From a virus: DNA of 64,000 nt. Both the position numbers and the translations under genes were made by a program. Below, piece after piece: positions 14,089 through 63,637 of this stretch. Location: positions 1-64,000 of IMG/VR virus record IMGVR_UViG_3300023208_000003; one strand, given 5' to 3'. Under the pieces are notes generated by a model that saw only the letters and a program-made list of their open reading frames with translations, searched no databases and was not told where the DNA came from. The first letter of the stretch is position 1. The number at the start of each line of letters is the position of its first letter.

Positions 14089-15204
14089 ATGCTGCCCAAT
14101 TTTCCGATCATTACGACAATTGATGATCTTCGCTCGCACGTAAGTCACCTTCCCGAAATTCGTTTTGCTGTCCAGCCAAATGGATACACAGTTGTTTGTG
14201 CAATGATCGCCGACACTGATACCTACGCTGGACCAAGCGCACCTTGGGCTCGCGAATGTCGCGGTATAACCTTTGACAAAAATGGTTTAATCGTAGCCCG
14301 TCCACTTCACAAGTTTTTCAATATGAATGAACGTGAAGATACGATGGAACATAAGCTGAACTTTAACGATGCTGTTCGCATTATGGACAAGCGGGATGGA
14401 TCAATGATTCACCCCGTAATGATGGCTGATTGTTCGGTTGTAATGAAGTCAAAAAAATCTTTTGAAAGTGACGTTGCAATTGCGGCAACTAAGTATCTGC
14501 AAGCAAATACGTTAATTAAGAATTTTTGCGAGCGGATGACGGCACACGGTAAAACACCAATTTTCGAATATACTGCGCCTACCGCACGAATCGTTCTTGC
14601 ATACCCTTTTGAAGAACTACGGCTACTTCACATACGTGATAACCTAACTGGTGAATATCTCGATCTTGACGTTTTTGCGCCTAACATCCCGCGAGTTGAC
14701 AATACGAATTACGTTGATTTAGCCCCGAGCAAACCAAATTTTCTATCTTCGTTGAAAACTCACCTTGAGCTAGATTCTGGATACGAAGGCTTTGTAATTC
14801 AGTTCAGCAACGGTGATATGGTAAAAGCGAAGACTGCCTGGTATCTTGATCTTCACCACAACGTGACATTCCCTACTTACCGGTCTGTCGCAACGATGGT
14901 GCTCAATGAAACAGTTGACGATTTTCGGTCTTACCTACACCAAGCTGGTGAAAATGATCGTCTGTTAGAGATCATCAAGATAATCGAAGATCAGGTAGTC
15001 AGTGAGCTCAAAGTTATTGAACTTGACATTGAATCTGTGCTTCAAAAAGACGGAACGCTTGAACGCAAGAATTTTGCTATCAAGTACCGCGAGCACAAGT
15101 ACTTCGGACTGCTAATGGCCACGTATGTTGGCAAGGAACCAAGCTACCGTGACTACTATACAAAAAATCTGCTGAAAGATCGTTTCTCAACGGATCAAAT
15201 CTAA
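14089..15204 (+). CDS. rnlA: RNA ligase 1 (T4 RnlA type)
   Basis: A 371-residue ATP-dependent RNA ligase, close to T4 Rnl1 length (374). The adenylation motif I is 'MDKRDGSM' with Lys101, close to Lys99 of T4 Rnl1. Motif IV is 'GYEGFVIQF' and motif V 'MVKAKTAWYLDLH', the latter very like the Rnl1 signature. In T4 it seals tRNA cut by host anticodon nuclease after end-healing by polynucleotide kinase/phosphatase; no Pnkp gene is visible here. The start is set by GGAG ('ctggagaattatc'). The gene is more GC-rich than most of the window (33 of 60 bases G+C in the line at 14221), hinting at different ancestry. Confidence 0.9.
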   Translation: MLPNFPIITTIDDLRSHVSHLPEIRFAVQPNGYTVVCAMIADTDTYAGPSAPWARECRGITFDKNGLIVARPLHKFFNMNEREDTMEHKLNFNDAVRIMDKRDGSMIHPVMMADCSVVMKSKKSFESDVAIAATKYLQANTLIKNFCERMTAHGKTPIFEYTAPTARIVLAYPFEELRLLHIRDNLTGEYLDLDVFAPNIPRVDNTNYVDLAPSKPNFLSSLKTHLELDSGYEGFVIQFSNGDMVKAKTAWYLDLHHNVTFPTYRSVATMVLNETVDDFRSYLHQAGENDRLLEIIKIIEDQVVSELKVIELDIESVLQKDGTLERKNFAIKYREHKYFGLLMATYVGKEPSYRDYYTKNLLKDRFSTDQI

Positions 15205-39922: not shown

Positions 39923-42196
39923 ATGCTACCTAATTCATTCTTTTTTCTTACTGAAGGAATTGCTCATTTAGAAGACTTACCAATAGATGATTTTTTAAAT
40001 ATTATGTCTCGTATTGGTGTGCTTGACGCGACAGAAAAAATGGATGGTGTAAATCTATGGTTCGGGTTTGATAAAGACGGTAGTTTCTTTACTTCTCGTG
40101 AAGGTAAAAATTCACACGCTGAACGTCGCTACTCAATAAATGATTATCCTGAAATTGGATCATCAAATGTTTTTAAGGTAGCTCATTCTGTTTTAAGTAA
40201 AAAACAAAAATTTTTGGCGCGGCTAATTAAACCTGGCCAAATCGTCGAAATAGAAGTAGCGCTTGGTAGTCAACCAAATTCAATTGCTTATAATGCTGGC
40301 AATCGTGTTATTTTAATAAGAGGCGTTGGAGATAATCCTGTTTCTGGTGAAACACTTGATAAAATAGCAGAAGTTTTAAACAAGCCGATTAACGTAAATG
40401 TTGACTTACTAAAAACTTCTGATGGTAAAACTTTAAGCTCAACGCCAACTGCCTTAAGCGTTAAAATAGAGCGCGTTAAAAAAATTGATAAATCAAAGCT
40501 TCAGATTAACGCAGCTAAAAAGCTCACAACGCAACTTCAAGATTTTCTTAAAAAACCAAGTGACATAGATTCTTCAAAGTCAAATCATGACATCGCAACT
40601 TTAAACCTTACGAGCATTGATAAAAGTGAACGTGACAAGTATAAAGATGCGCGAAAAAAACTTCAAAAACAGCTTCATGATAGCTTTATGTTACCAATAA
40701 AGCAAAAACTTCTTGGTAAAATTTCAAAAGAAGATGAAACAAATGTTGAAGGAGTTGTTCTTAGTGATCCTAAAACAGGCGAGCAAATTAAGCTTGTTGA
40801 TAAGGACGTGTTTACCGCTATCAATGAATTCACACATAAAATTCGGAAAGAAATTGCTGATGTTGTTGCAACCGATGACCCCTTAGCGTCAGAGGAACTT
40901 AAAGGTGGTATCTTTGGTGAAGCAAAGCTTCGTATTGCCAGACTTCTTGGTAACTCAGCTTTAGCTAGAGGCGGCGAAGCTCGCAAAATGCTTGAAAGAT
41001 ATAAAGGGGCTAACGCAACTGAGACAGCGCAAAATTTCGCAGACGCAATTGAAGGCTTAGAATTTGAAGATGCTAAAATAAAAATTAATGCAATTTTAGA
41101 TAGTACTCAAAAGCAAATTGATAAAAAACTCGAAACATTCAAAAAGAATTCAAGTAGCTACAAACTTAAGTTAAAAACTGGAAAGGAAATAAGTTATAGT
41201 CCTGAAACAATTGATAGAACTCTACTAGCGTTTGCTGAATTAAATAAAGACATCGGAAAGTTGCGCGCTCAAATGAAAAAAGCTGATTCATTTGCAAAAA
41301 TTATTACAGTGCTTTATAGCAACCAATTAAAGTCAATTCACACTGCAAAAACAATTAAAGAAAGCTTGTTAGTTGAATACGCGAATCCTTCCACAAAGGC
41401 GCTTGATACTCTTACACATAAACAAGTTTGCGCTGCTTACACTGCTTCATTGCTTGCGTCACAGCTAATTTTACGCTGTAAGGATCGTCGTGGTGCAAAT
41501 ATTATCAAGGATCAAAAACACGTTTCACTTGCAAAGCTTGAAACTAGTGCCAGCCCGCTAAATTTTTGGGGAACAATTCTTTTTAGCTCTGATAAAGCTA
41601 AAGTAAAAATGCTTCTTAGTTCTAAAACAGCTCGCGAGTTAGAAAAAACAGCTGGTAGGTTTGTAAATAGAAGAATAAACTTTATTCATAAATCACTAGG
41701 AACTGGTAACTTTAGTCAAGATTGGTCAGAGCAACAAAAAAGCGCGCATTTAGTAGCATTAAGATTAGATACTTGCTCAAAACTAATAAATACCATAACA
41801 GTTGGTATTGCGAACTGGGATGAAATTGATCTAAGTGATAAAGCAGAAGTTGTTTCACGATTAATTATTTACGTAATGCAAAGCTGCCCAAATTCACCGC
41901 TGCTTGAACCACTTAACAGAATTTCTCAAGGAATATTGACTACTGCAAAAACAGCGGATAATACTGATAAACAAGAACTTTCAAAAATGGTTGAAAATTT
42001 AATTAAATGGGTTATGGAAGACGGAGAAGAGGGTGGTGATGCTGCTCCAGCTCCTGCTCCAGGTATAACATCAAGCAGCGCAATTGCAACTATTCCTCAA
42101 CGATTATTTAGAGGCAAGCTCGTCAGTCGCATCAAACGCACGTTTACTCGTAAACCAAAATTTCCTCGACCAAATACACAGGCAAAAACAGAGTGA
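39923..42196 (+). CDS. Large protein with N-terminal nucleic-acid-ligase-type nucleotidyltransferase domain
   Basis: A 757-residue protein. Residues ~1-300 show covalent nucleotidyltransferase motifs: I 'DATEKMDGVNLWF' (Lys39-x-Asp-Gly), Ia-like 'SFFTSREGKN', III-like 'GQIVEIEVALGSQP', IV 'NVEGVVLSDP' (Glu276) and V-like 'EQIKLVDKDVF'. This set is typical of ATP-dependent RNA/DNA ligases and capping enzymes. The remaining ~450 residues are helical, with many A, K and E, and unrecognised. The N-terminus 'NSFFFLTEGIAHLED' contains L-T-E/G, like a prohead protease site. It is late-expressed, unlike the RNA ligase 1 at 14089, so a packaged or assembly-linked role is possible. Substrate unknown. 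Confidence 0.65.
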   Translation: MLPNSFFFLTEGIAHLEDLPIDDFLNIMSRIGVLDATEKMDGVNLWFGFDKDGSFFTSREGKNSHAERRYSINDYPEIGSSNVFKVAHSVLSKKQKFLARLIKPGQIVEIEVALGSQPNSIAYNAGNRVILIRGVGDNPVSGETLDKIAEVLNKPINVNVDLLKTSDGKTLSSTPTALSVKIERVKKIDKSKLQINAAKKLTTQLQDFLKKPSDIDSSKSNHDIATLNLTSIDKSERDKYKDARKKLQKQLHDSFMLPIKQKLLGKISKEDETNVEGVVLSDPKTGEQIKLVDKDVFTAINEFTHKIRKEIADVVATDDPLASEELKGGIFGEAKLRIARLLGNSALARGGEARKMLERYKGANATETAQNFADAIEGLEFEDAKIKINAILDSTQKQIDKKLETFKKNSSSYKLKLKTGKEISYSPETIDRTLLAFAELNKDIGKLRAQMKKADSFAKIITVLYSNQLKSIHTAKTIKESLLVEYANPSTKALDTLTHKQVCAAYTASLLASQLILRCKDRRGANIIKDQKHVSLAKLETSASPLNFWGTILFSSDKAKVKMLLSSKTARELEKTAGRFVNRRINFIHKSLGTGNFSQDWSEQQKSAHLVALRLDTCSKLINTITVGIANWDEIDLSDKAEVVSRLIIYVMQSCPNSPLLEPLNRISQGILTTAKTADNTDKQELSKMVENLIKWVMEDGEEGGDAAPAPAPGITSSSAIATIPQRLFRGKLVSRIKRTFTRKPKFPRPNTQAKTE

Positions 42197-44010
42197 AAAA
42201 TTTACTTCAAGAAATTGACAACGCAATAGCTAATCCAGATCATCCTGCAAAAATTTCACCATTTGCACCTGTAGAAGATCCAAAGCTAGTTCAACAACAT
42301 TTGGATAATGCGGTAAGCGTTGATGACGGTGTTGATACGATAACATTTGGATTAGAAACTGATGATGGTGAAATAGTAAAAGTTTACGTAAATGCTTCTC
42401 AAGCTGATGAATTTGAAAAGAAGATGGGTGAGCTTTTAGGTCAAGAAGACGATATTGAAAAAGCCATTGACGCGATGGCTACTGAATTTGATATCGTTCA
42501 TGTTGAGTGGCCAGAAGATCGTCAGCATTCAGCTGATACAGAGGATGAGTTTAGTACCGATAATTCTGATATTGATGATTCTTTAGAAGATGAACCACAA
42601 TCTTTAGACATTAGCATTGATCCAGAAGAAGTAGAAGATGATAAAGAAAAAGATGATAAAGAAAAAGATGAAGAAGATCCTGACAATCTAAAATTAGATG
42701 GTGATGATGATAACATTGATGTTGGTGACTTTGGTGGTGATTCTGATAATCTTTCACTTGATGATGAAGACCTAGAAAAAGATTCAAAAGACAAGGAAGA
42801 TTCTGACGATCTTTCATTAGATGACGAAGAACCAAGTGAAGATGATGAAGATACTGACGAAGAACCTGCAAATGATGATGAAGAACCAGAAGATGATGAA
42901 TCAGAAGATACTGAAAAGAAACCAAAAAAGAAAAAATCAAAGAAAACTGACAAACCAGAGAAAAAGGAAAAAACTATGGACCACTTAGAAACAAAAAATC
43001 TTTCTATTGGTCAGCAATTTGCGCAGAGAATTCTCGGCGAAGCGAAGGACGTAAAGCCAAATTTCGATAAAGAACAAGAAGAAATAATGAGCTTAGCTAC
43101 GTCTAAGATGCAAGAAAAAATCTTAACGATTATTTTGCTTCTAAACTTTCCGCCTAAAATTCTTCGCTTAGAAAAGCCTGACCTAAAACGTAACGTTCGT
43201 GATATTGCTGTTGATTTAGTAGGCAATGCGCGCGCCAAAATGTGGATGAATCGCTTAATTAAGGAATTAGTTGGCGGTAACTCTAAAAAAGATGACAAAG
43301 AAGAAATTAAAGAGGCACGCAGCGCGTTTGATGACGCTTATGTTACTCGTACTCAGGAAATTCTTGAACAGCTTTTTGTTAAGCTTGGTGTTCCAGCTTC
43401 TTTCTTTAACCCCAAGAAGGCAATTGTAAAAACAGCTTTACGTGAAACATCAGTAATGGTTATTTCAAAGAACAGAGTTAAAACTATTCTTTTCTTACTT
43501 GCTGAATCCCTTGGCATTGATGTTAAAGTTGTAAATCAACCACCTAAAATTGATGATAAAAAAGACAACAAGAAAAAGAAGGACAAGGTAACAGAAGCTC
43601 GTGCTGACATTGACACGAAGGACCCTTATATACGCTTAGTCCTTAAAATTGTCGATGCTCTCGGTGTCCCTGCGGAACATCTAGAATGGCACCAGATGAA
43701 TTTGATAAACTCATTGAGGCAGAAAAAGAGAACCCTTAACTTTGGCTTAGTTCGCACAAAAGCAAATCAGTTACTTGATGCACTTGGAACTACAAATGAA
43801 GATCGCGAAGAAATCAACTCACTTTTCACGTTAGCTGAAAAGGAAAGTGACTACGTAGGAAAGCGCTTCATTATTAAGGAAAAAGCTAAAATCGTAATCA
43901 TTGGTCACGATAAATCTACTGATGTTCTTACTTACACGGTTGAAGGTCTTTCAAAGAAACACGAAATGACTGTTGACGCGCTTAAATTGATCGGTAAGGA
44001 GATTGCGTGA
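42193..44010 (+). CDS. Very acidic late protein with three C-terminal repeats, GTG start
   Basis: A 605-residue protein starting with GTG (GTGA overlap). N-terminal ~110 residues form a small domain; residues ~115-250 are an extreme D/E/S low-complexity tract, ending in a lysine-rich block. Then come three related helical units of ~65 residues (starting near 290, 380 and 475; compare 'VKLGVPASFFNPKKAIVKTA' with 'DALGVPAEHLEWHQMNLINS'). Each unit is preceded by an (I/L/V)-x-E-A-(K/R) site: 'ILGEAK' (280-285), 'IKEAR' (372-376), 'VTEAR' (466-470). That fits T4-type prohead protease cutting. A scaffold-like or internal head polyprotein is a reasonable guess. Confidence 0.6.
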   Translation: MKNLLQEIDNAIANPDHPAKISPFAPVEDPKLVQQHLDNAVSVDDGVDTITFGLETDDGEIVKVYVNASQADEFEKKMGELLGQEDDIEKAIDAMATEFDIVHVEWPEDRQHSADTEDEFSTDNSDIDDSLEDEPQSLDISIDPEEVEDDKEKDDKEKDEEDPDNLKLDGDDDNIDVGDFGGDSDNLSLDDEDLEKDSKDKEDSDDLSLDDEEPSEDDEDTDEEPANDDEEPEDDESEDTEKKPKKKKSKKTDKPEKKEKTMDHLETKNLSIGQQFAQRILGEAKDVKPNFDKEQEEIMSLATSKMQEKILTIILLLNFPPKILRLEKPDLKRNVRDIAVDLVGNARAKMWMNRLIKELVGGNSKKDDKEEIKEARSAFDDAYVTRTQEILEQLFVKLGVPASFFNPKKAIVKTALRETSVMVISKNRVKTILFLLAESLGIDVKVVNQPPKIDDKKDNKKKKDKVTEARADIDTKDPYIRLVLKIVDALGVPAEHLEWHQMNLINSLRQKKRTLNFGLVRTKANQLLDALGTTNEDREEINSLFTLAEKESDYVGKRFIIKEKAKIVIIGHDKSTDVLTYTVEGLSKKHEMTVDALKLIGKEIA

Positions 44011-44675
44011 AATTCACTTATGTTGAATTAAAAGCTGAAACAATTCCTGGTTTTGGAAGGGTGTATGAAACACCTGAAAACAACCTATATCCTTCCATCA
44101 CCACAATTTTGGGAAATACGATGGAAATTAAGAAGCGAGAGATATTAAAAAACTGGTCAGAATCAGTCGGTATTGAAAAAGCAGAAAAGATTACCCAAGA
44201 AGCTGCTGATAAAGGTACTAACGTCCATTTAATGATTGAGCGCAAACTACTCAAACAAGATATTAATTATGCTGAATTTCCTGATGTTGATGTAGCTGCT
44301 TTTAAAGCTTTACTTCCAAAGTTAAAGCATATAGATGAAGTGTGGGGATTAGAAGTTCCTCTTTATTCTGATTTACTGGAAGTTGCTGGGCGTACTGACT
44401 GCGTTGGAGTATACAAAGGGTTGCCTTGCATTATCGACTTCAAAACCAGTCGTCGATTGAAAAGTGAAGATGACATAAGTGATTATAAACTTCAGTTGGC
44501 TTTTTATTCAGTTGCCCACAATGAAAGATTTGGGACTGATATTACTGACGGCGTTATCTTAATGACGGCCGCACAAGGATTTCCAATGGAATTTAGAGTA
44601 GATCTAATTCCAGAAATTGAGCGCTTGGTTGCGCGAATTGACGAATACTATAACAAACTTGCGCAAGTCGCGTAA
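44007..44675 (+). CDS. PD-(D/E)xK exonuclease, RecB/Cas4-like
   Basis: A 222-residue protein with GTG start overlapping the previous stop. 'AADKGTNVHLMIE' gives the conserved His motif, 'EVAGRTDCVGVYKGLPCIID' followed by 'FKTSRR' gives the D...D-x-K catalytic core, and 'YKLQLAFYSVAHN' the downstream Q-x-x-x-Y helix. This is the RecB-nuclease/MGME1-like family. It probably trims DNA ends during recombination or packaging. The late operon context is unusual for a recombination gene. Confidence 0.8.
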   Translation: MKFTYVELKAETIPGFGRVYETPENNLYPSITTILGNTMEIKKREILKNWSESVGIEKAEKITQEAADKGTNVHLMIERKLLKQDINYAEFPDVDVAAFKALLPKLKHIDEVWGLEVPLYSDLLEVAGRTDCVGVYKGLPCIIDFKTSRRLKSEDDISDYKLQLAFYSVAHNERFGTDITDGVILMTAAQGFPMEFRVDLIPEIERLVARIDEYYNKLAQVA

Positions 44676-44685
44676 TGGAGACACA

Positions 44686-45099
44686 ATGAACACAAATGAA
44701 ATGTTTGGCGATTATGCTACGCTTTCTTATCCTACACCTGAACCTGCAGCTTCTGAAACTGAAATTTCAACAGAACCTACTCCTGAAATCACCGTAGCAG
44801 ACACAGTTGAAGTTTCACCAAGTCTAGAAGGAGAGCTTTACGCTTACCCTCTTGAAGTCACATTGACAAATTCAGACGAGCAATGGGTTTATCTTGCACT
44901 TACTCTTAACGTTTCAGTTGCAAACAATTCAGTTAAGGTTATTAAGAAACTTAAAGTTTGTAAAGAAAGCTTACGTGGGGACTTCTTAGTACAGTTAAAT
45001 AAACCTGCTACTGTTGTTGAATCAATTAAATCAAAAGATGATCTTAACAAAAGAATGCGTGAACTCGCTGGTATTCCTAACAAAAAGAACTTTGTGTAA
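44686..45099 (+). CDS. Hypothetical protein
   Basis: A 137-residue protein; ATG 44686 with GGAG upstream is preferred to an in-frame start at 44617 inside the nuclease gene. Residues ~10-50 are a T/P/E-rich disordered segment; the rest is a beta strand region ('EQWVYLALTLNVSVANNSVK') with a helical end ('LNKRMRELAGIPNKK'). Unknown. Confidence 0.55.
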   Translation: MNTNEMFGDYATLSYPTPEPAASETEISTEPTPEITVADTVEVSPSLEGELYAYPLEVTLTNSDEQWVYLALTLNVSVANNSVKVIKKLKVCKESLRGDFLVQLNKPATVVESIKSKDDLNKRMRELAGIPNKKNFV

Positions 45100-45101
45100 T
45101 T

Positions 45102-46613
45102 ATGTCAAAGCTAATTATTTTAACAACTGAACCAGAAAACTTTGTACCGATAGAATTAGAGAAGGCAGCAAAAGAAGCAGGATTAGAAGTTGAAATTCTT
45201 AATCCTGATGAATGCTACATTTCATTAAGTGAAGAACCTTATATCTCGTACAAGGGAACAAAGTTTCTTGCTGCGGATTTTTGCATTCCGCGACTATCGG
45301 AGGAAAATCTTGAATACAAAATTGCTATCGCAAATCACATTGAAAAAATGGGCGTCAAGATTCTCAATACCGGAAAATCTTTACGTGCGGCTTCAAATAA
45401 AGTCGAAACTCAAATATTACTTAATAATGACGGAATTAAAACTCCTAAAACTGCAATTCTTACATCTGATGAACAGCTTGAACACGCAATTGAAGCTATA
45501 GGCGCCGAGTTTCCAGTAATTGTTAAGACAATCTTTGGTACGCATGGTGTGGGTGTTATACGTGCCGATTCCGCGCCCTCGCTTCGTTCGATTGTTCAGC
45601 AGTTATTAAAAGCTAATGTTGAATTTATGATTCAAGAGTTTATTAAACATGAAGAAAGCGGGCGCATTATCACTCTTGGTGAGGATGTACTAATTGCAGC
45701 GATGCGTACAATTCCTGAAGGTGACTTTCGTTCGAACGCGCATCAAGGAGCAGAACTAAAACCACATGATCCATCAGAAAAAGAAATTGAAATTGCGCTT
45801 AAAAGCGCAAAAGTTCTTGGCATAAATTTTGCAGCAGTCGATTACATCTTAAGTAATGATGAAGTTATTGTTCTTGAAGTCAATGGTTCACCGGGCTTTG
45901 AAGCAATGCAAAAAATAGCTGATTTTCAAATTGCAGAAAAGATTATTACCTACATTAAAGGTGAAACTCCTGAAGAAGAGGAGGAAGAAGCTGAAGTCGT
46001 GGACGTTGATCACGAAAAAGCGGTTGAACACGACAAGGAAGAAAATAAAGATGATGAAGCTAAAAAAACTGTGACAGTTCCAGATTCTGATCCTGAAGCT
46101 CAAGTAGCAGAACCTAAGAAAGACGAAGACGAACATAAGGAAGTTGACGTAACTGGGCAAGATGATAAAGTTATTGGAACATTAACTTCAGTTATTGTTA
46201 AACACTTTAATGATGAGGCGCCAATTGAAGCTCGAGTTGATACTGGTGCGCACGTTAGTTCTATTTGTGGTCAAGATATAAAAATTTCTGGTAATACTGT
46301 TTCATTCCGCTTTAATGACACGATTTACAAATTTCACCTTTTACGAATGGCAAAAATTAAACAGGCTGACAGTGAAAAAGCTGAAGAACGCCCTGTTATT
46401 CGCGTCGATATCGTAATCAACGGTGAAACTTTACGCAACGTAGAATTCACTGTCAATGAACGTAAACATATGAAGTATACAATTCTTCTAGGTCGTCAAA
46501 CGCTTGCTGCTGCTGGAGTTCTAGTTAACCCCGCAGCAAATCTAATTGACAAGGATAATAATTACAAAGTTGATAAAAATGATGATTCAAAAACAAGCAA
46601 TGAAGAAGAATAA
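45102..46613 (+). CDS. RimK-like ATP-grasp ligase fused to RimB-like aspartic protease domain
   Basis: A 503-residue fusion. Residues ~1-290 are a RimK-type ATP-grasp amino acid ligase: 'FPVIVKTIFGTHGVGV' (nucleotide-binding Lys and Gly loop, ~137-152), 'FMIQEFI', 'AAVDYILSNDEVIVLEVNGS' and 'PGFEAMQ' (Mg-binding E and N). Residues ~290-350 are an E/D/K linker. Residues ~365-490 form a retropepsin-like domain with 'EARVDTGAHVSSIC' (catalytic Asp380-Thr-Gly), as in RimB/'ATP-dependent zinc protease'. In bacteria RimK adds Glu to ribosomal protein S6 and RimB acts on that tail. Here both are in one chain in a late operon; the target may be S6 or a phage protein. Confidence 0.8.
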   Translation: MSKLIILTTEPENFVPIELEKAAKEAGLEVEILNPDECYISLSEEPYISYKGTKFLAADFCIPRLSEENLEYKIAIANHIEKMGVKILNTGKSLRAASNKVETQILLNNDGIKTPKTAILTSDEQLEHAIEAIGAEFPVIVKTIFGTHGVGVIRADSAPSLRSIVQQLLKANVEFMIQEFIKHEESGRIITLGEDVLIAAMRTIPEGDFRSNAHQGAELKPHDPSEKEIEIALKSAKVLGINFAAVDYILSNDEVIVLEVNGSPGFEAMQKIADFQIAEKIITYIKGETPEEEEEEAEVVDVDHEKAVEHDKEENKDDEAKKTVTVPDSDPEAQVAEPKKDEDEHKEVDVTGQDDKVIGTLTSVIVKHFNDEAPIEARVDTGAHVSSICGQDIKISGNTVSFRFNDTIYKFHLLRMAKIKQADSEKAEERPVIRVDIVINGETLRNVEFTVNERKHMKYTILLGRQTLAAAGVLVNPAANLIDKDNNYKVDKNDDSKTSNEEE

Positions 46614-53753: not shown

Positions 53754-54392
53754 ATGCATAGCCCGTTTCATATCGTTCAGGATTTTTTGTCTCCAAAACT
53801 CTGTGATGAAATATTAAGACAGATTGAACTAAAGCAACCAAATACCGATCGTGAAGGAAAAGCGATTCCATTTGAACGGCACCATGAGGGGCTAGAAAGA
53901 TTAATTTTTCCGCTTCTTAAACAAGAAGTTCCAAACATTGAGCAGCGTTATTTTGCAAAATATAAAGGAACTGAAACTTTAGTTTTTCAGCATTTTCCTG
54001 AACGCGCTAATACAATTGCAAAGCAACCAGGTTGTGAAAACGCGCAGTACACGCGCAAAAAATGGGTTAAAATAAAAGACGTTGATCTTACTGGATTTAT
54101 CTGGTTAAAGGATTTCAATGACTCTGTGCCGCTTGACCCACGAATTGAAGTCTATGGTGGCAAGCTAGAATTTCCAGCGTACAATTTTAGCTTACAACCG
54201 CAACGCGGAACTCTCGTTCTATTTCCTGCTGGTCCTCACTTTATAAATGCAATTTCGCCTGTGCTAGTAAGTGACCTTTATCAAATTAAAGTCAATATCT
54301 GTCTTTCACCAAATGACGGAAGTGGTATTTACCTTTATCAGCCAGCGAAATTTCCTGGCAAATGGCAAGATTGGCTAAAAGAGTTTGTTTAA
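53754..54392 (+). CDS. 2OG-Fe(II) oxygenase-like double-stranded beta-helix protein
   Basis: A 212-residue protein whose C-terminal part follows the prolyl-4-hydroxylase pattern: 'LTGFIWLKDFNDSVP', 'YGGKLEFPAYNFSLQPQRGT', 'LVLFPAGPHFINAISPV' and 'YQIKVNICLS'. The distal His is present (in G-P-H). The proximal H-x-D iron ligands, expected before 'LTGFIWL', are not obvious: the region reads K-I-K-D-V-D. It may therefore be a non-catalytic relative. T4-like cyanophages carry many members of this family. Ends tail-to-tail with the PAAR gene (shared TTAA). Confidence 0.6.
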   Translation: MHSPFHIVQDFLSPKLCDEILRQIELKQPNTDREGKAIPFERHHEGLERLIFPLLKQEVPNIEQRYFAKYKGTETLVFQHFPERANTIAKQPGCENAQYTRKKWVKIKDVDLTGFIWLKDFNDSVPLDPRIEVYGGKLEFPAYNFSLQPQRGTLVLFPAGPHFINAISPVLVSDLYQIKVNICLSPNDGSGIYLYQPAKFPGKWQDWLKEFV

Positions 54393-57576: not shown

Positions 57577-58218
57577 TTACAATTTTGCGTACTTTGAGAA
57601 ACCTTTTTCAATTAACTCAGCTTTTGTCTCTAAAAGATCAGATTTATTATGCACCGACTGCTTTATAATTGTAAGCACTTTTGTTAAATCTGAATTATCA
57701 TCATCGAAAAAAATACCAGGCTTTGTTTCATCAAATTTAATAAACATAATTTGAAGCGGATTTACAATTGCTTTACAACCATAAAAAACAATAGAAGCGC
57801 CTATTTTTTTCGGCAATCCTTTTAATGATGTTAAATTTACGCATCCCTCAAGAGACAGAAATCCAGTATAAGTAGGAGCGTGCTCAAGGCTTTTTAAAGC
57901 TACACAATTAACAATATACATATCACCAATTACAGTAATCGGCCCACCTTCAAGTGTTTCAAGCTTACTACAATCAGAAAGATCAAAATAGCTTTTAATA
58001 TACGAAGGAGAGCCTTTTAATGATGTAATCTTTGAATGATTAAAATCAGCATACCCCTTTAATTTGCAACCAGGAACATATTGATAAAACTTATATCTTT
58101 CAACTAAGCCATCAAGCGAATCCCAATATTGCGGTATTTCTAAATCGGCGTAGCAAATAGGAATGTTATCCGTATTAGCGACTGGTTCTTTAAAACGTTT
58201 AACTTCACTAAGCTTCAT
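57577..58218 (-). CDS. Paralogue-array member 1, leucine-rich-repeat type
   Basis: A 213-residue protein. It opens 'MKLSEVKRFKEP'. Residues ~60-150 hold LRR-like units of ~21 residues ('ITSLKGSPSYIKSYFDLSDC', 'LETLEGGPITVIGDMYIVNC', 'LTSLKGLPKKIGASIVFYGC'), a repeat common in large phages. The C-terminal module ends 'DLLETKAELIEKGFSKYAKL', shared with six other genes up to 63098. It is separated from them by the spanin-like gene. Function unknown. Confidence 0.7.
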   Translation of the reverse strand: MKLSEVKRFKEPVANTDNIPICYADLEIPQYWDSLDGLVERYKFYQYVPGCKLKGYADFNHSKITSLKGSPSYIKSYFDLSDCSKLETLEGGPITVIGDMYIVNCVALKSLEHAPTYTGFLSLEGCVNLTSLKGLPKKIGASIVFYGCKAIVNPLQIMFIKFDETKPGIFFDDDNSDLTKVLTIIKQSVHNKSDLLETKAELIEKGFSKYAKL

Positions 58219-58661
58219 TTTTTTTTACTGCTTCTAATGGTCTGAATGTCACGAAGCGTTTCGCGCAGAACCGGTGCAACCGGGCCATCGGCAAGCTTCG
58301 AGAGCTTCTTAGCTATATTGTCATATTGCTCATGGTTTTGGCGTATCACCTCGTTTAACCGGGTGACAGCTTGATATGCTTTAAGTTGTTCTTCCAGCAC
58401 CCGGTTCAAAGTTTCCTGGGTTGTACGGTTGGCATCAACTACAGTGTTTAGCTCTTGGGTAATTTGCCCAAGCTGCTGTTCGGCTTCTTTGTTCTTTTTG
58501 TTGAGGTACATCACGGTTCCTGCGGCGCCAATTAGTGCGATAGCAAGAACCCAGATTGTCCAACCTCGCTTTACAATGTTGGACGTACCTATCCAGGCAA
58601 CGCTAATTCCGTCCTTCGCTTTCTCTAACCAGGTAAGTGCTTGTTCGTTTGTATCACTCAT
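58215..58661 (-). CDS. Inner-membrane coiled-coil protein, i-spanin candidate
   Basis: A 148-residue protein with a short cytoplasmic N-terminus, one membrane span (~34-53, 'TIWVLAIALIGAAGTVMYL') and a long periplasmic coiled coil (~55-130, 'EAEQQLGQITQELNTVVDAN'). This is the layout of an Rz-type inner-membrane spanin. Its DNA is clearly GC-richer than its neighbours (34 of 60 bases in the line at 58261 against 19 of 60 at 58681), suggesting separate origin. It overlaps the 57577 gene by 4 bases. Confidence 0.55.
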   Translation of the reverse strand: MSDTNEQALTWLEKAKDGISVAWIGTSNIVKRGWTIWVLAIALIGAAGTVMYLNKKNKEAEQQLGQITQELNTVVDANRTTQETLNRVLEEQLKAYQAVTRLNEVIRQNHEQYDNIAKKLSKLADGPVAPVLRETLRDIQTIRSSKKK

Positions 58662-58662
58662 T

Positions 58663-59325
58663 TTAGTACTTCGCTATTTCTTTAAAACCATTTTCAATCA
58701 ACAACACTTTTAATCCCAGCGGATCATTTTCCTGAACATATTTTGAAACCTCTCTTTCAAAGCTTCTGCTCATTTCCCACTGTTTCATATCTGTCATAAT
58801 TTCAACAGTTTTTAGTCCTGGAATGCTGCAAAGATTTAGCCAACCCAATGTTTCAAAAGTGATTGATGCTTTTTCAGCGTGTTCAATTGTCTTTACTGCT
58901 TCAACCAAGTTAAAATTTCTATCATACTTATTGCTTGGAAAGCGAACACACTTTGATCGAATTTTTATACCTGATAGAGCGCCTTCATTAAAAGTTGTCC
59001 AGTAAAAATCAAATTTTGCTGGCTGCATTTGTTCATCATTTTTTAACAATAATTTTAAAGGTTCAATAAATTCAACGTCAACATCCATTGATTTTATTAA
59101 CGCAACTCTAAAAATTGAACTGCGAAATTTTGGATCCTTTTCTAAACCTAAGCCGCCGCCTTCAGTTAATTTTACTTTTTTTTCCGTAAAAGCTGGAATT
59201 GAATTTTTTACTTTATTATTGAACCAGCGGTGACCATGCATATTCGCATCATCAATCCAAACACTAATAAGAATTGGGTATTGAAAAAATTTAAGGCGTG
59301 CTTCTGATAATTCAATTAACTTCAT
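58663..59325 (-). CDS. Paralogue-array member 2 (most diverged)
   Basis: A 220-residue protein starting 'MKLIELSEARLKF', with L-S-E/A as a possible protease site. The C-terminus 'DPLGLKVLLIENGFKEIAKY' is a diverged form of the shared D-x-L-x-x-K-x-E-L-I-E-x-G-F-x-x-x-A-K-L module. The middle is alpha/beta ('SIFRVALIKSMDVDVEFIEP') without LRR-type units. It starts inside the stop of the upstream paralogue (ATGA). Confidence 0.65.
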   Translation of the reverse strand: MKLIELSEARLKFFQYPILISVWIDDANMHGHRWFNNKVKNSIPAFTEKKVKLTEGGGLGLEKDPKFRSSIFRVALIKSMDVDVEFIEPLKLLLKNDEQMQPAKFDFYWTTFNEGALSGIKIRSKCVRFPSNKYDRNFNLVEAVKTIEHAEKASITFETLGWLNLCSIPGLKTVEIMTDMKQWEMSRSFEREVSKYVQENDPLGLKVLLIENGFKEIAKY

Positions 59326-60191
59326 AACTTTGCGTAAGCTCCTAAGCCGTTCTCAATTAACTCTGTCTTGCACTCAAGAATATCACCTACTTCTCCATCT
59401 GCAGATCGTATATAGTTGTTTATAATTTTTACAGCAGCTTCCATATTTTTAATTTTTGGCCCGGAACTATCAAAAAATGAAGATGTTTTATCAAGATAAA
59501 TTTCCCAAAGACGCACGCACAATAATGCAGATAGTAAATTAACAGGATTTTTCGCAGCGAAGCTAAAAGACTGGAGATGATCAAACTTTTTAAGGTTTTT
59601 TATATTAATGTTATCTGCAAAAAGTTTTAAAGATACTAAGCTCTCAGGTAAACCTTTTACATCAAGACTTGAATTTGCGTAAGCGCCTACAATTCTCATC
59701 CCTTTAACAAAAGAATCTGCTATGTCAAACGCTGGATAATTTGCATTACCAAGACGAATGTCAAATCCATCACTAATCGTAGCAGGAAATTCTTCCCAAG
59801 ATTTAAAGTTGCATCTTGAAAGAAATAGTCTAGTCATTTCATCAGGAAATCCAACAAAATTTTCAAAGCTCACTTTTAAAAATGATAATCTGCCGGCGTG
59901 CGTAATCTTAACGCGAAATTTTTCAACGCCACCATCATTTATAAAAAAGTCATCTGCGGAAACTTCATTTTGGTCAAGATTAACTTCTGATTGAGACACA
60001 TTTTTTATTATAAGTTCACCTTGAGAAATTATAGTATGAAGTGAACGCGGATTTATTTTATAAAAGCTGCTGCTCAAAAGCAAAGTTTCTTCAAAAAATT
60101 TTTCAACAGCGTCATAGGTGTCAAGCATCCAAGGACGATACGGAGTAATCTTTTTTCCAATATGTGGATTTTGTACCTCAAATAATTTCAT
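59322..60191 (-). CDS. Paralogue-array member 3
   Basis: A 289-residue protein, closely related to the next member: both start M-K-(L/V)-F-E-V-(x2)-P and share 'TPYRPWMLDTYDAVEKF' / 'TPYCPWMLKTYREVQEY', an LRR-like middle ('FENFVGFPDEMTRLFLSRCN') and C-terminal 'DILECKTELIENGLGAYAKL'. This pair is the clearest recent duplication of the array. Function unknown. Confidence 0.7.
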   Translation of the reverse strand: MKLFEVQNPHIGKKITPYRPWMLDTYDAVEKFFEETLLLSSSFYKINPRSLHTIISQGELIIKNVSQSEVNLDQNEVSADDFFINDGGVEKFRVKITHAGRLSFLKVSFENFVGFPDEMTRLFLSRCNFKSWEEFPATISDGFDIRLGNANYPAFDIADSFVKGMRIVGAYANSSLDVKGLPESLVSLKLFADNINIKNLKKFDHLQSFSFAAKNPVNLLSALLCVRLWEIYLDKTSSFFDSSGPKIKNMEAAVKIINNYIRSADGEVGDILECKTELIENGLGAYAKL

Positions 60192-61009
60192 AACTTTGCA
60201 AACTCCTCAAGCTTTGCTTCAATTAATTCTGCTTTACAGTCGAGCACGTCTTTTTCTTTGTGAAGGTGTTTAACGATAATACTGCAAGCTTCGCCAGCTC
60301 TTACCATTGGTTCTTCCTTATCAATACCAGGGCCAGGACCTACAGCTATAAGTTCAGGGCAAAGCAAGAATGAAAGTAGACCAGTCGATTCTTTAAAGTA
60401 AAAAGTAAATTGACGAACGTGCGGGTAAAACTTTCCAACCTTCTTAAAGTTAATTGAGTTTCCGCCTGCAAACATCGAGCGTACATCCTGTGGGCCACCT
60501 TCAAGCGTTGGGATATCACTTTGATCGGTTACACCATAAACAAAATTCTTGCAACTTACGTGTGAGATATCAAAAGGTTTATATCCTTTCAAGTAAAAAT
60601 TTAAATCCTCATGAATAATCTGTGGAAACTCGTCAAAACTTTCAATTTCAGCTTCGTCAAGCGATAAAGTATTAACTGTATCAGGAAAACCTGCAAAATT
60701 TTTAAGTCGGACTCCTGCTGGTATTTGAAGCGTGTTAATATGCGACCACTTTGCTGGCAAAATATGGTAGCCATTTTTTTCAATGAAAAAAGAATCTATA
60801 GTTGGACCAAAAGACCCTTTAGGTTTGACAAAAATTGAATCATGACAGCTTACCTCTAAATTGCGAGGGTTGATTTTTGCCTTGTCATTGTCAAACAGTT
60901 TTAGCCCTTGAAGATACTCTTGTACCTCACGGTATGTTTTTAACATCCACGGGCAGTACGGTGTAACTTCGCGGTCTAAATAAGGTTGTAAAACTTCAAA
61001 TACTTTCAT
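60188..61009 (-). CDS. Paralogue-array member 4
   Basis: A 273-residue sister of the 59322 product, with the same N-terminal block, LRR-like centre ('LKNFAGFPDTVNTLSLDEAE') and terminal 'DVLDCKAELIEAKLEEFAKL'. Overlaps both neighbours by 4 bases. A proline/glycine insert ('VGPGPGIDKEEP') stands before the C-terminal module. Function unknown. Confidence 0.7.
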   Translation of the reverse strand: MKVFEVLQPYLDREVTPYCPWMLKTYREVQEYLQGLKLFDNDKAKINPRNLEVSCHDSIFVKPKGSFGPTIDSFFIEKNGYHILPAKWSHINTLQIPAGVRLKNFAGFPDTVNTLSLDEAEIESFDEFPQIIHEDLNFYLKGYKPFDISHVSCKNFVYGVTDQSDIPTLEGGPQDVRSMFAGGNSINFKKVGKFYPHVRQFTFYFKESTGLLSFLLCPELIAVGPGPGIDKEEPMVRAGEACSIIVKHLHKEKDVLDCKAELIEAKLEEFAKL

Positions 61010-61665
61010 AATTTTGCATTTTGTGAATATCCTTGTTCAATTAACTCAGCTTTAACGTCTAAAAGATCATGATTTGACCTAAGCGCGCCTTGAATTATTT
61101 TTGCCCAAGGAGTTTGATTTCCTGTAATAGTTATAAATTTAATGTAAGGAATTAACATTAGCCCTAAACCACCAACATTAATAAACTGCGGATTGTTTAA
61201 AATTATTTGATTTGCAAATGTAAATTTTTTATTAACACCTATTAAACTATTTAAAAAATTATGCGAACAATAAAGCTTTATTGAATAGTACTCATATGTT
61301 TCAGAATTAGGAAGTTCGCGAAAGCAAAGTTGCATATCATTGTCAATTCCAAGCTTATCACCAGTCACTTTAATTCCAACGTCATTTAAAATTTCATTTA
61401 CTTTATCAAGTTCATCCATTGTTATATTTGGTTTACAATTAAACAAGACTCTTATATAATGATTGCGTTTACCTGATAAAGTACCATTATCAAACATATC
61501 AGAATCAACATATTCAATACCTGGCAGAAATGTAGTGTCGTTAAGCGCGTCAATAACATTTTGTAAAGCAGAATAATCATCAAAGTTATTAGAAAATGAC
61601 ATTTTAGACTTAAGTGTAAGCCAATTTGGCGCCATCTCTATTAAAAATTGCTTAAAGCTTTGCAT
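61006..61665 (-). CDS. Paralogue-array member 5, capsid-targeting-like N-terminus
   Basis: A 219-residue protein opening 'MQSFKQFLIEMAPNW', close in form to the T4 capsid-targeting peptide 'MKTYQEFIAE'. The middle is an alpha/beta domain also seen in members 6 and 7; the end is 'DLLDVKAELIEQGYSQNAKL'. Its first codons are written inside the last codons of member 6 in another frame. Function unknown. Confidence 0.7.
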   Translation of the reverse strand: MQSFKQFLIEMAPNWLTLKSKMSFSNNFDDYSALQNVIDALNDTTFLPGIEYVDSDMFDNGTLSGKRNHYIRVLFNCKPNITMDELDKVNEILNDVGIKVTGDKLGIDNDMQLCFRELPNSETYEYYSIKLYCSHNFLNSLIGVNKKFTFANQIILNNPQFINVGGLGLMLIPYIKFITITGNQTPWAKIIQGALRSNHDLLDVKAELIEQGYSQNAKL

Positions 61666-62434
61666 ATTGACTAAATCCCTTTTCTATTAATTCTGCCTTA
61701 CAGTCAAGCATGTCACGTTCACCTTTTAAATGATTACTGATAATTTCAAACCATAATTCATTTTTTGTTATTGCGAAATTTGAATGAATAGAAAACTCTC
61801 CTTTTATTAATAAAATTCCAAGAACATTACTTTGAATATACGGAATAGTTCCAGCAGTAAAAACTATTTCACTAAATCCGTCTGCTAAAACACGAATATT
61901 TGAATACTGACTTTTCTTTTCATTAATAATAGTAGGGATCATTTTGTGAATATTCGTAAGTGATGTCGGTGAGCTTGCCTCAATAAAAACATCATCAACA
62001 TTATCAACTACGATACCTTTAAACGGAAGATTAATCCATACAAAACTATTAACTTCCATTTTTATGTCTGAACCAAATTCCGCACGAAGCTGTTGAATAA
62101 ACCCATTCCGTAACTTTAAGCAATCAACGCTTTGAACCAATGGAAATGACATTTCAAGTTCATATACCGGGCCATCAGCTCCAAGTGACGTTAAAATATC
62201 ATCGTCTTCATAATTATGTGTTCGCTTTAATGAAAAAGCGCGCTTAAAGTTATTTTTAACAGTGTTAAACTCTTCGACCGTAGCTGGAAATCTTCGCTCA
62301 AGATCAGATTTGCTTATTTCGTGATCTTCTCCATTAAAAAGTTCATCATCAGATTCAATAAAAATCTTAGGAACTATTTTAAAAGCTGTTACTGGTTGCA
62401 ACCCCTCTTTTAAGAAATGTTTAAAGTTTTGCAT
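61652..62434 (-). CDS. Paralogue-array member 6, capsid-targeting-like N-terminus
   Basis: A 260-residue protein. I place the start at ATG 62434 ('MQNFKHFLKEGLQ'), because it aligns with members 5 and 7 and follows a GGA; an in-frame ATG 15 bases upstream (62449) is possible. The end is 'DMLDCKAELIEKGFSQYAKL'. The centre shares 'VLGILLIKG' with 'GGLGFLLIDD' of member 7. Function unknown. Confidence 0.7.
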   Translation of the reverse strand: MQNFKHFLKEGLQPVTAFKIVPKIFIESDDELFNGEDHEISKSDLERRFPATVEEFNTVKNNFKRAFSLKRTHNYEDDDILTSLGADGPVYELEMSFPLVQSVDCLKLRNGFIQQLRAEFGSDIKMEVNSFVWINLPFKGIVVDNVDDVFIEASSPTSLTNIHKMIPTIINEKKSQYSNIRVLADGFSEIVFTAGTIPYIQSNVLGILLIKGEFSIHSNFAITKNELWFEIISNHLKGERDMLDCKAELIEKGFSQYAKL

Positions 62435-63098
62435 GCTGTCCAAATCCATTTTTAATTAATTCTGTTTTACATTCAAGCAGGTCACGATCTTCACTTTTTA
62501 AGTAACCGTTCAAAGTACTTAACCAAACCGGTATATCATCAGTATCACAACGTAAAAATTCAAGATCATCAATTAATAAAAAACCAAGACCGCCCTCTTT
62601 AAATTCATTAATATCAAAAAGACTTAAAGTCTTAAATGAAAAAGTATCCTTTGTAATTTTAATTTTTTTATGAATACCGCAAAGACTTTCAAATTTAGTG
62701 TTACCATTTAAAAACAACTTAAAACCATCTGGTGACCAGACATTGTTTGGCATTTTAAAAAGATCAGCAAATATATTAACTGAAAATATTGAATATCCTA
62801 ATTCGCTAATTTGTTTTTCAATCCATTTAAATGTAGATTGCGAAATAAGTTCAGTGCACGGTTTAATCGCTTCAAAATCAAATTCAAGTTCACTACCACG
62901 ATCTAGATAAAAATCAATCGGTCGCAAATAAGGTTTAAATGAACTTTCATTCTTAAAGCTATAAACTAAACCACCAATATTATCTTTGAAATGATTAAGT
63001 TCTTCGCTAGATCTAGTAAAATTTACATCTAATACGATTTTAAAAAGTGCGTCATAATCAGGTTCAGCTTCTATTAAAAATTGCTTAAAGTTTTTCAT
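62421..63098 (-). CDS. Paralogue-array member 7, capsid-targeting-like N-terminus
   Basis: A 225-residue protein. The start at 63098 ('MKNFKQFLIEAEPDY', L-I-E/A) gives the ATGA overlap with the upstream gene, so the in-frame ATG at 63113 is rejected. It ends 'DLLECKTELIKNGFGQHAKL'. It is the first paralogue in transcription order. Function unknown; virion cargo is suggested by the N-terminus. Confidence 0.7.
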   Translation of the reverse strand: MKNFKQFLIEAEPDYDALFKIVLDVNFTRSSEELNHFKDNIGGLVYSFKNESSFKPYLRPIDFYLDRGSELEFDFEAIKPCTELISQSTFKWIEKQISELGYSIFSVNIFADLFKMPNNVWSPDGFKLFLNGNTKFESLCGIHKKIKITKDTFSFKTLSLFDINEFKEGGLGFLLIDDLEFLRCDTDDIPVWLSTLNGYLKSEDRDLLECKTELIKNGFGQHAKL

Positions 63099-63637
63099 GG
63101 GGTCAACCAACACCTGTATTCTACGTGCATTGCATTTACAAAGATTCGCTCAAGCTCTGCTGGGCTAATACAAGTATCAGTGATTGGAAATCCGCCTTTC
63201 TTCCACATTTTTGCCGCCATTTCAGAACAAAATTCACCTTCTTCATTCACTGCTGGAAGCCAACAATATTGTTTTATGCCAGACCAAATAGCTTTCAAGT
63301 AACTGTATGGAGCTTTATTAATTTTAGAAAGTAAATCATCTGAAAATAATTTGAAATCAACATATGATGGCATCGCAAGAACATGAAGATCTTGTTTTGA
63401 ATATTCAGAAAGTGAAATAATTCTACGATGACTATCCATGGCTTCAACTAAAAACAAACGTTTTTCTTTTGTTAACTCATTTGTTAACCAAATTGCTATT
63501 CCAACATGATAAATTGGCGAGCCAGTAAAAAATGAAATCGTGCTGGCAAAAAGGGAGAATCTTTTAGGTCGAAGTATTGTTACAATATCACCACTTTCAA
63601 TTAACTCTCTACCTTGCGCGTACTGTAAAACTTTCAT
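63095..63637 (-). CDS. NlpC/P60-type (YiiX-like) cysteine hydrolase
   Basis: A 180-residue protein of the permuted papain fold: 'GSPIYHVGIAIWL' with His44 and 'EEGEFCSEMAAKMW' with Cys137, in the order His-then-Cys that marks YiiX/YaeF-like members. 'SGDIVTILRPKRFSLFASTI' is the usual N-terminal strand. It may cut cell-wall peptides or lipid/amide bonds. It stands between small structural genes and the paralogue array, with ATGA/TAATG couplings on both sides. Confidence 0.75.
   Translation of the reverse strand: MKVLQYAQGRELIESGDIVTILRPKRFSLFASTISFFTGSPIYHVGIAIWLTNELTKEKRLFLVEAMDSHRRIISLSEYSKQDLHVLAMPSYVDFKLFSDDLLSKINKAPYSYLKAIWSGIKQYCWLPAVNEEGEFCSEMAAKMWKKGGFPITDTCISPAELERIFVNAMHVEYRCWLTP

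What the first reader, a model, noticed from the sequence alone, without database searches (positions are those of the whole stretch)
45102..46613. RimK-like glutamate ligase and RimB-like protease joined in one phage protein
Seen: ATP-grasp motifs up to residue ~270, an acidic linker, then an aspartic-protease core D-T-G-A-H. Known: bacterial RimK adds glutamates to the C-terminus of ribosomal protein S6 and RimB modifies or trims that tail; the genes are neighbours. Inference: a phage 'writer plus eraser' could tune host ribosomes late in infection or modify a phage protein. The acidic neighbour at 42193 and the K-L-ending paralogues are possible targets.
Basis: partly seen in the sequence, partly recalled or inferred. 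Interest (0 to 1): 0.68.

Follow-up and report, generated by a model that had tools for sequence, protein, structure and literature searches.

The report
Phage RimK–RimB fusion with glutamate tail
A phage enzyme joins a domain that adds glutamates to protein ends with a protease domain related to one that removes them, and it carries at its own end the kind of glutamate stretch that such enzymes act on, so it may write and erase a polyglutamate tail on itself.

Summary
The ORF at 45102–46613 is a real fusion: a RimK-type glutamate ligase (residues 3–285), an acidic disordered linker, and a RimB-like retropepsin (373–483; DTG at 380). Both domains pass Pfam cut-offs. The architecture is known: marine phage RimK with C-terminal DUF785 (PF05618) was reported in 2008, and bacterial RimBK hybrids of opposite order in 2025. 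I found the K–B form in 164 of 167 similarity-picked loci.

New is the C-terminus. In the window's phage clade 14 of 16 distinct fusions end in EEE, although the tail before it is not conserved (background: 1 of 157 ORFs). Haloarchaeal K–B hybrids end in EE in 9 of 9; bacterial stand-alone RimK ends in E in 0 of 78; but Mosig-type phage fusions end in EE in only 1 of 124. In the 197-kb genome the only EEE-stop and the only run of five Glu codons lie in this gene.

My reading: a self-primed polyglutamate writer and eraser whose own tail is an acceptor; host S6 remains a rival. 'Late infection' is not supported: neighbours are replication genes, and the YerA41 homologue is middle-expressed and virion-associated. 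No biochemistry was tested.

The parts
45102..46613 (+). RimK-RimB (K-B) fusion gene, 503 aa
45108..45380 (+). RimK pre-ATP-grasp domain (residues 3-93)
   Evidence: PF18030
45390..45956 (+). RimK ATP-grasp ligase domain (residues 97-285)
   Evidence: PF08443; predicted fold aligns with solved RimK 7qyr at Z 36.2 over 284 residues and with the RimK-RpsF complex 5zk6 at Z 35.7
45966..46163 (+). acidic, predicted disordered linker (residues 289-354; a short stretch 321-329 scores a little higher)
   Evidence: pLDDT under 50 for 289-320 and 330-354
45972..45989 (+). six consecutive Glu codons in the linker; fits the published RimB cleavage requirement of six contiguous Glu
   Evidence: only run of five or more GAR codons in the 197-kb record; RimB specificity in PMC11957791 section 7
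46218..46550 (+). RimB-like retropepsin domain (residues 373-483)
   Evidence: PF05618; sequence match to solved chains 9g59 (E 3.2e-6) and 9g58 (E 8e-6)
46239..46247 (+). catalytic D-T-G (residues 380-382)
   Evidence: present in 164 of 164 K-B ORFs; invariant in A3
46602..46610 (+). C-terminal Glu-Glu-Glu, putative built-in acceptor
   Evidence: 14 of 16 distinct clade members end in EEE; only EEE-stop in the 197-kb record
42193..44010 (+). conserved acidic neighbour protein (25% D/E), candidate trans substrate
   Evidence: no Pfam family above cut-off
44007..44675 (+). PD-(D/E)XK exonuclease-type neighbour
   Evidence: PF12705 26.0 bits, cut-off 22; phrog_298 E 3.3e-54
44617..45099 (+). small ORF directly upstream (first start 44617; 44677 tested as a later start)
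   Evidence: closest relatives have similar-sized ORFs ending in LAGI..PKNYV
53754..54392 (+). ~210-aa protein whose homologue lies directly after the fusion in several relatives; here separated by a 2112-aa ORF and two small ORFs
   Evidence: 46% identical to L002:7781-8407

Best explanation
A bifunctional polyglutamate enzyme. SHOWN by sequence and fold: a RimK-family ATP-grasp ligase with its metal-site residues, joined to a RimB-like retropepsin with its catalytic DTG. INFERRED from characterised relatives: the ligase uses ATP to add L-glutamates, by alpha-peptide bonds, to a protein C-terminus that already ends in Glu; the retropepsin, acting as a dimer, cuts Glu runs off again, and its contact stimulates the ligase. 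PROPOSED here: the acceptor is, at least partly, the enzyme's own C-terminus, kept as EEE. One molecule in an oligomer extends the tail of another and the RimB domains trim or release it, so the protein switches between tailed and untailed states, or releases poly-alpha-glutamate. In the window's phage the six-Glu linker could also be cut, separating the two enzymes. Placement among replication genes, and virion association plus middle expression of a distant homologue, suggest action from early to middle infection.
For: Domains and residues. C-terminal EEE in 14 of 16 distinct clade proteins; the last three positions are 88-100% conserved while positions -4 to -30 have a commonest residue of only 12-44%; GAA/GAG codons vary; shuffling each last-25-residue tail gives 0.23 EEE ends on average, at most 3. 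Background 1 of 157 ORFs; in the window 1 of 72 ORFs ends in EE, and that one is the fusion. Haloarchaeal K-B hybrids: 9 of 9 end in EE against 1 of 44 other genes on one such plasmid. Controls: bacterial solo RimK 0 of 78 end in E; solo RimB 4 of 72 end in EE; two B-K hybrids do not end in EE. RimK's natural acceptors, as printed in PMC11957791 Table 1, end in Glu (RpsF tails GDSEE, DNADE), and RimB cleaves runs of about six Glu, also internal ones. RimB is needed for detectable poly-alpha-Glu synthesis by SBW25 RimK in vitro. The one characterised hybrid, D. psychrophila RimBK, cleaved but was not seen to glutamylate RpsF, which leaves room for another acceptor.
Against: No activity has been measured. 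The large Mosig-type K-B group almost never ends in EE (1 of 124), so a Glu tail is not needed for a K-B fusion. Clade members L002 (DDDEK) and L011 (DEE) lack EEE. A linker run of six or more Glu is not conserved: 1 of 164 in the first survey (the window), and one further 8-Glu run (L264) in the second. NCBIfam equivalog cut-offs for S6 ligase and for RimB are not reached. The tail is disordered in the model, so its docking is not shown. EEE could serve another purpose, such as autoinhibition. The related proteins are not independent samples.
Confidence: 0.45

Rival explanations
1. Ribosome retuning: the main substrate is host ribosomal protein S6 (RpsF). The fusion sets its glutamylation level during infection, and the enzyme's own EEE is a pseudo-substrate that regulates the ligase or protease.
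For: RimK family membership; the solved RimK-RpsF complex is among the top fold matches; RimABK controls RpsF tails in Pseudomonas (PMC11957791). Mosig carries a putative S21 gene near its fusion. The 2008 authors proposed modification of translation proteins by analogy with the T7 kinase. The YerA41 homologue is found in virions and expressed in the middle phase.
Against: 158.3 bits against a cut-off of 331 for the S6-ligase equivalog. The characterised hybrid was not seen to glutamylate the tested RpsF. No S6 in the phage record. The host is unknown, so its S6 tail was not examined. Haloarchaeal hybrids occur although archaea lack bacterial-type S6 (recalled).
Confidence: 0.3
2. The substrate is a phage protein in trans, above all the conserved acidic neighbour (42193-44010), whose charge is tuned by adding and trimming Glu.
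For: An acidic protein lies two to five genes upstream in the clade loci whose maps reach that far. In L002, the clade member whose fusion ends in DDDEK, the acidic neighbour ends in EEE, and it is the only EEE-ended background ORF of 157.
Against: The neighbour does not end in EEE in the other clade loci seen (for example FLALF, NLW, DED, DEA), nor in the window (KEIA). Nothing like it is annotated beside the Mosig or YerA41 fusions.
Confidence: 0.12
3. The ligase joins another amino acid or makes free poly-alpha-glutamate, and the protease domain mainly stimulates synthesis or degrades that polymer; S6 and the tail are irrelevant.
For: RimK relatives include LysX, CofF and MptN with other substrates. 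RimK plus RimB makes free poly-Glu of up to 28-36 residues.
Against: Does not explain the conserved EEE or EE ends in two distant K-B groups.
Confidence: 0.1

Closest known systems
Marine phage RimK with C-terminal DUF785 (PF05618), PMC2530865 (2008)
   Same: Same domain order in marine phage contigs, one next to regA; more than a hundred metagenome contigs with RimK homologues, several with DUF785 (passages).
   Different: DUF785 was then of unknown function; the passages seen do not mention a protease, an acceptor tail or the window's clade.
Bacterial RimBK hybrid (Desulfotalea psychrophila), PMC11957791 (2025)
   Same: Both domains in one chain; protease activity shown on polyglutamylated RpsF.
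   Different: Opposite order (RimB at the N-terminus). Two plasmid B-K hybrids read here do not end in EE.
RimABK of Pseudomonas (separate rimB and rimK genes)
   Same: Same two enzyme families; 70 of 80 bacterial loci have one rimB and one rimK ORF within the fetched stretch, most of them adjacent.
   Different: Separate proteins; bacterial RimK ends in E in 0 of 78; RimA was not sought here.
Haloarchaeal K-B hybrids ('RimK/LysX family protein')
   Same: Same K-B order; 9 of 9 end in EE. The order was noted in 2008.
   Different: Deeply separate in the K-domain tree; cellular, on plasmids; short tails.

Membership tests
RimK family alpha-L-glutamate ligase (TIGR00768, PF08443) | score over curated cut-off | tested here: met
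   TIGR00768 194.2 bits against 143.4; PF08443 141.7 against 21
RimK family alpha-L-glutamate ligase (TIGR00768, PF08443) | ATP-grasp metal and active-site residues | tested here: met
   K142, R202, D247, E259, N261 invariant in 34 fusions, aligned with the same residues of solved RimK; their catalytic roles are recalled
S6-L-glutamate ligase equivalog (NF007764) | score over curated cut-off of 331 | tested here: not met
   158.3 bits
S6-L-glutamate ligase equivalog (NF007764) | adds Glu to ribosomal protein S6 | not testable with these tools
   needs biochemistry; host unknown
PF05618 retropepsin-like peptidase | score over cut-off and DTG motif | tested here: met
   60.2 bits against 27; DTG in 164 of 164 K-B ORFs
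RimB equivalog (NF052261) | score over curated cut-off of 200 | tested here: not met
   41.2 bits
RimB equivalog (NF052261) | cleaves contiguous Glu (about six) | not testable with these tools
   needs assay
Bacterial RimBK hybrid | RimB domain N-terminal to RimK | tested here: not met
   order is K then B
Marine phage RimK-DUF785 | phage gene, RimK followed by PF05618 | tested here: met
   prior report; that the window's habitat is marine was not tested

The most novel reading that the evidence does not exclude
K-B fusions of large phages and haloarchaea are self-primed polyglutamate enzymes: ligase, protease and acceptor tail are in one chain, so the protein writes and erases a charge tag on itself, or works as a cyclic poly-alpha-glutamate synthase that grows a chain on its own EEE and cuts it free. 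In the window's phage it could also cut its own linker.
Probability: 0.4. Interest if true: 0.78.

Novelty: new variant of a known kind. Interest (0 to 1): 0.6.

Why it matters
What RimK–RimB hybrids act on is an open question in print: the one tested hybrid cleaved but was not seen to glutamylate RpsF. A conserved Glu-ended C-terminus in two distant K–B groups names a concrete acceptor that one mass-spectrometry experiment can test. If it holds, phages carry a reversible, self-contained polyglutamylation device, a modification best known from tubulin and from bacterial ribosomes.

Tried and rejected
Chance or artefact: rejected, because full-length relatives at 28–59% identity exist in many contigs.

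EEE as a translation-start by-product of the next gene: rejected for the window, L007, L013, L089, L263, L265, L270, L272 and L273, where the next start lies about 38 bases or more downstream; possible for L008, L011, L012, L264, L279 and L284, where a reading frame can start on or beside the stop codon. The letters GAAGAAGAA are not a canonical ribosome-binding site (recalled).

Self-cleavage at the linker as a general mechanism: rejected, because long Glu runs are rare.

K–B fusion in bacteria: of 80 bacterial-genome loci one had a K–B ORF (L235), but its neighbours (clamp-loader-like ATPase and others, judged by eye) make it a phage contig in a MAG. In 398 genomes of the phylum of G003 no listed match reached the B domain (154 genomes matched; list cut by the tool; best 198.6 bits against 405–475 for phage fusions with the same model). 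This sample does not cover Flavobacteriales or archaea well.

Single origin of phage K–B: in the K tree 32 phage fusions plus the unfused Melnitz RimK form one group (support 98, quick search, long-branch warnings); the B tree does not settle it (support 0 at the key branch).

The structure job on the RimB domain alone failed (pLDDT 36) and was not used. The fold-search lists are filled by the ligase domain, so the RimB fold rests on sequence alone. T4-like prohead processing at Glu sites was considered from memory and not pursued.

Papers: PMC11957791 read as outline with abstract, passages, and sections 5, 6, 7, 8, 13, 14; PMC2530865, PMC7354516 and PMC7824862 as passages; all others as search listings only. 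No paper listed appeared, from its listing, to describe auto-glutamylation of RimK or a RimB-type protease in phage; the library is open-licence only.

Full report
WHAT IS THERE. The ORF 45102–46613 encodes 503 aa. Residues 3–285 are a RimK-family ligase (PF18030, PF08443, TIGR00768 above cut-offs) and residues 373–483 a PF05618 retropepsin-like domain. The best solved relatives by sequence are RimK (5zct, 4iwx, E about 1e-41) for the first part and 9g59/9g58 for the second (E 3.2e-6 and 8e-6). The AlphaFold2 model from 34 aligned fusions has mean pLDDT 82.4; the linker (289–320, 330–354) and the last 21 residues are disordered. The ligase part aligns with P. aeruginosa RimK at Z 36.2 and with the RimK–RpsF complex 5zk6 at Z 35.7. 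Residues invariant in all 34 aligned fusions include K142, R202, D247, E259, N261 and D380-T381-G382.

HOW COMMON. G000 is a virus record of 197,099 bases with one copy. In named phages, 32 records matched the query; the listed matches lie in the ligase part. I opened 4 of the 32: Pelagibacter phage Mosig and Yersinia phage YerA41 carry K–B fusions, cyanophage S-RIM12 and Methylophilales phage Melnitz-3 carry only RimK. In the 167 loci held, 164 have K then B in one ORF (136 distinct sequences); the other three are S-RIM12, Melnitz-3 and L045, whose ORF runs off the contig. DTG follows the K domain in 164 of 164. These loci were mostly chosen by similarity to fused queries, so this is not a prevalence.

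PRIOR ART. Marine phage RimK with DUF785 (PF05618) on the C-terminal side, and the same order in Halobacteria, were reported in 2008 (PMC2530865). In 2025 RimB was shown to be a retropepsin that removes Glu from polyglutamylated RpsF, needs about six contiguous Glu, also cuts internal runs, and stimulates poly-alpha-glutamate synthesis by RimK; a bacterial hybrid of opposite order, RimBK, had protease activity, but glutamylation of RpsF was not observed (PMC11957791). I found no listed paper that joins these two facts for phages.

THE NEW OBSERVATION: A GLU-ENDED C-TERMINUS. The window protein ends in SNEEE. A scan with the clade alignment gave more relatives. In 16 distinct clade proteins, 14 end in EEE; the others end in DEE (L011) and DEK (L002). 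Near-copies L009, L266–L269 and L271, re-fetched contigs, and L285 (cut by the contig end) were left out of the 16. The commonest residue at positions -1, -2, -3 reaches 94, 100 and 88%; at -4 to -30 it is 12–44%. Codons vary between GAA and GAG. Tail shuffles give at most 3 EEE ends in 10,000 trials. Of 157 other non-overlapping ORFs on 15 of these loci, 1 ends in EEE: the acidic neighbour in L002, the locus whose fusion ends in DDDEK. In the window, 1 of 72 ORFs ends in EE, the fusion. In G000 the patterns GARGARGARTRA and GARGARGARTAR each occur once on both strands together, at this stop codon, and five or more Glu codons in a row occur only in this gene's linker.

CONTROLS. Haloarchaeal K–B hybrids on plasmids: I opened 9 of 11 matching records; all 9 end in EE, against 1 of 44 other genes on one plasmid; one of the nine (L286) is unannotated and short, one (L293) was read stop to stop. 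Bacterial solo RimK: 0 of 78 end in E; solo RimB: 4 of 72 in EE, 1 of these in EEE; other phage K–B: 1 of 124 in EE. Two B–K hybrids end in GVE and RKA. So the Glu end marks two of three K–B groups, not retropepsins or hybrids in general; the Mosig-type group is a clear exception and the main result against a general rule.

CONTEXT AND TIMING. The clade mostly shares an order: large ORF, acidic protein, PD-(D/E)XK nuclease, small ORF, often a ~275-aa ORF, fusion, often a ~210-aa ORF. The window lacks the 275-aa ORF next door and has the 210-aa homologue at 53754. Primase and DnaB-like helicase genes lie upstream. In Mosig the neighbours are regA, clamp, ATPase and DNA polymerase genes, with a putative S21 gene nearby. 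YerA41_066 lies after ribonucleotide reductase genes and is annotated 'structural protein'; Table 3 of its paper lists g112 'Ribosomal protein modification protein' as middle-expressed and found in particles by LC-MS/MS; equating g112 with YerA41_066 is my inference from the neighbouring reductase genes. This argues against late-only action.

MECHANISM. Shown: architecture, motif conservation, conserved Glu end. Inferred from relatives: ATP-dependent Glu addition at a Glu-ended C-terminus and retropepsin trimming. Proposed: the enzyme's own tail is an acceptor. Host S6 remains a serious rival; the acidic neighbour is a weaker one. Equivalog cut-offs for S6 ligase and RimB are not reached, so I file the protein in the RimK and PF05618 families, not as an S6 ligase or RimB.

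Noticed in passing
L258:970-1878 (in the 345-kb phage record of L011): A second, stand-alone RimB-like domain (302 aa, DTGAA, ending DNDEKE) lies directly before an ORF that looks by eye like a gp25-type baseplate protein.
   Followed up: partly
L002:8468-9454: A phage contig carries an ORF that reads like a Gram-negative porin with a signal peptide (judged by eye), just after the fusion neighbourhood.
   Followed up: no
window 57577-63113 (- strand) and L264:6605-9833: Runs of paralogues, most ending in ELI(E/T).G...AKL/AKF; their ends are not Glu. Proteins with similar ends follow the fusion in several relatives.
   Followed up: partly
L287, L294 (haloarchaeal plasmids) and L297 (Phaeobacter plasmid): Genes annotated succinylglutamate desuccinylase/aspartoacylase sit beside the hybrid or beside rimB-rimK; possibly another Glu-tail enzyme.
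   Followed up: no
L235: A contig binned as Parcubacteria looks like a T4-like phage fragment with a K-B fusion.
   Followed up: partly
window 14089-15204: RNA ligase / tail fibre attachment catalyst (phrog_562), hinting at a T4-like relationship; the ORF at 39923 has only a very weak RNA-ligase match (PF09414, E 0.12).
   Followed up: no
L264:4953-6605: A close relative of the window fusion has a run of eight Glu in its linker.
   Followed up: no
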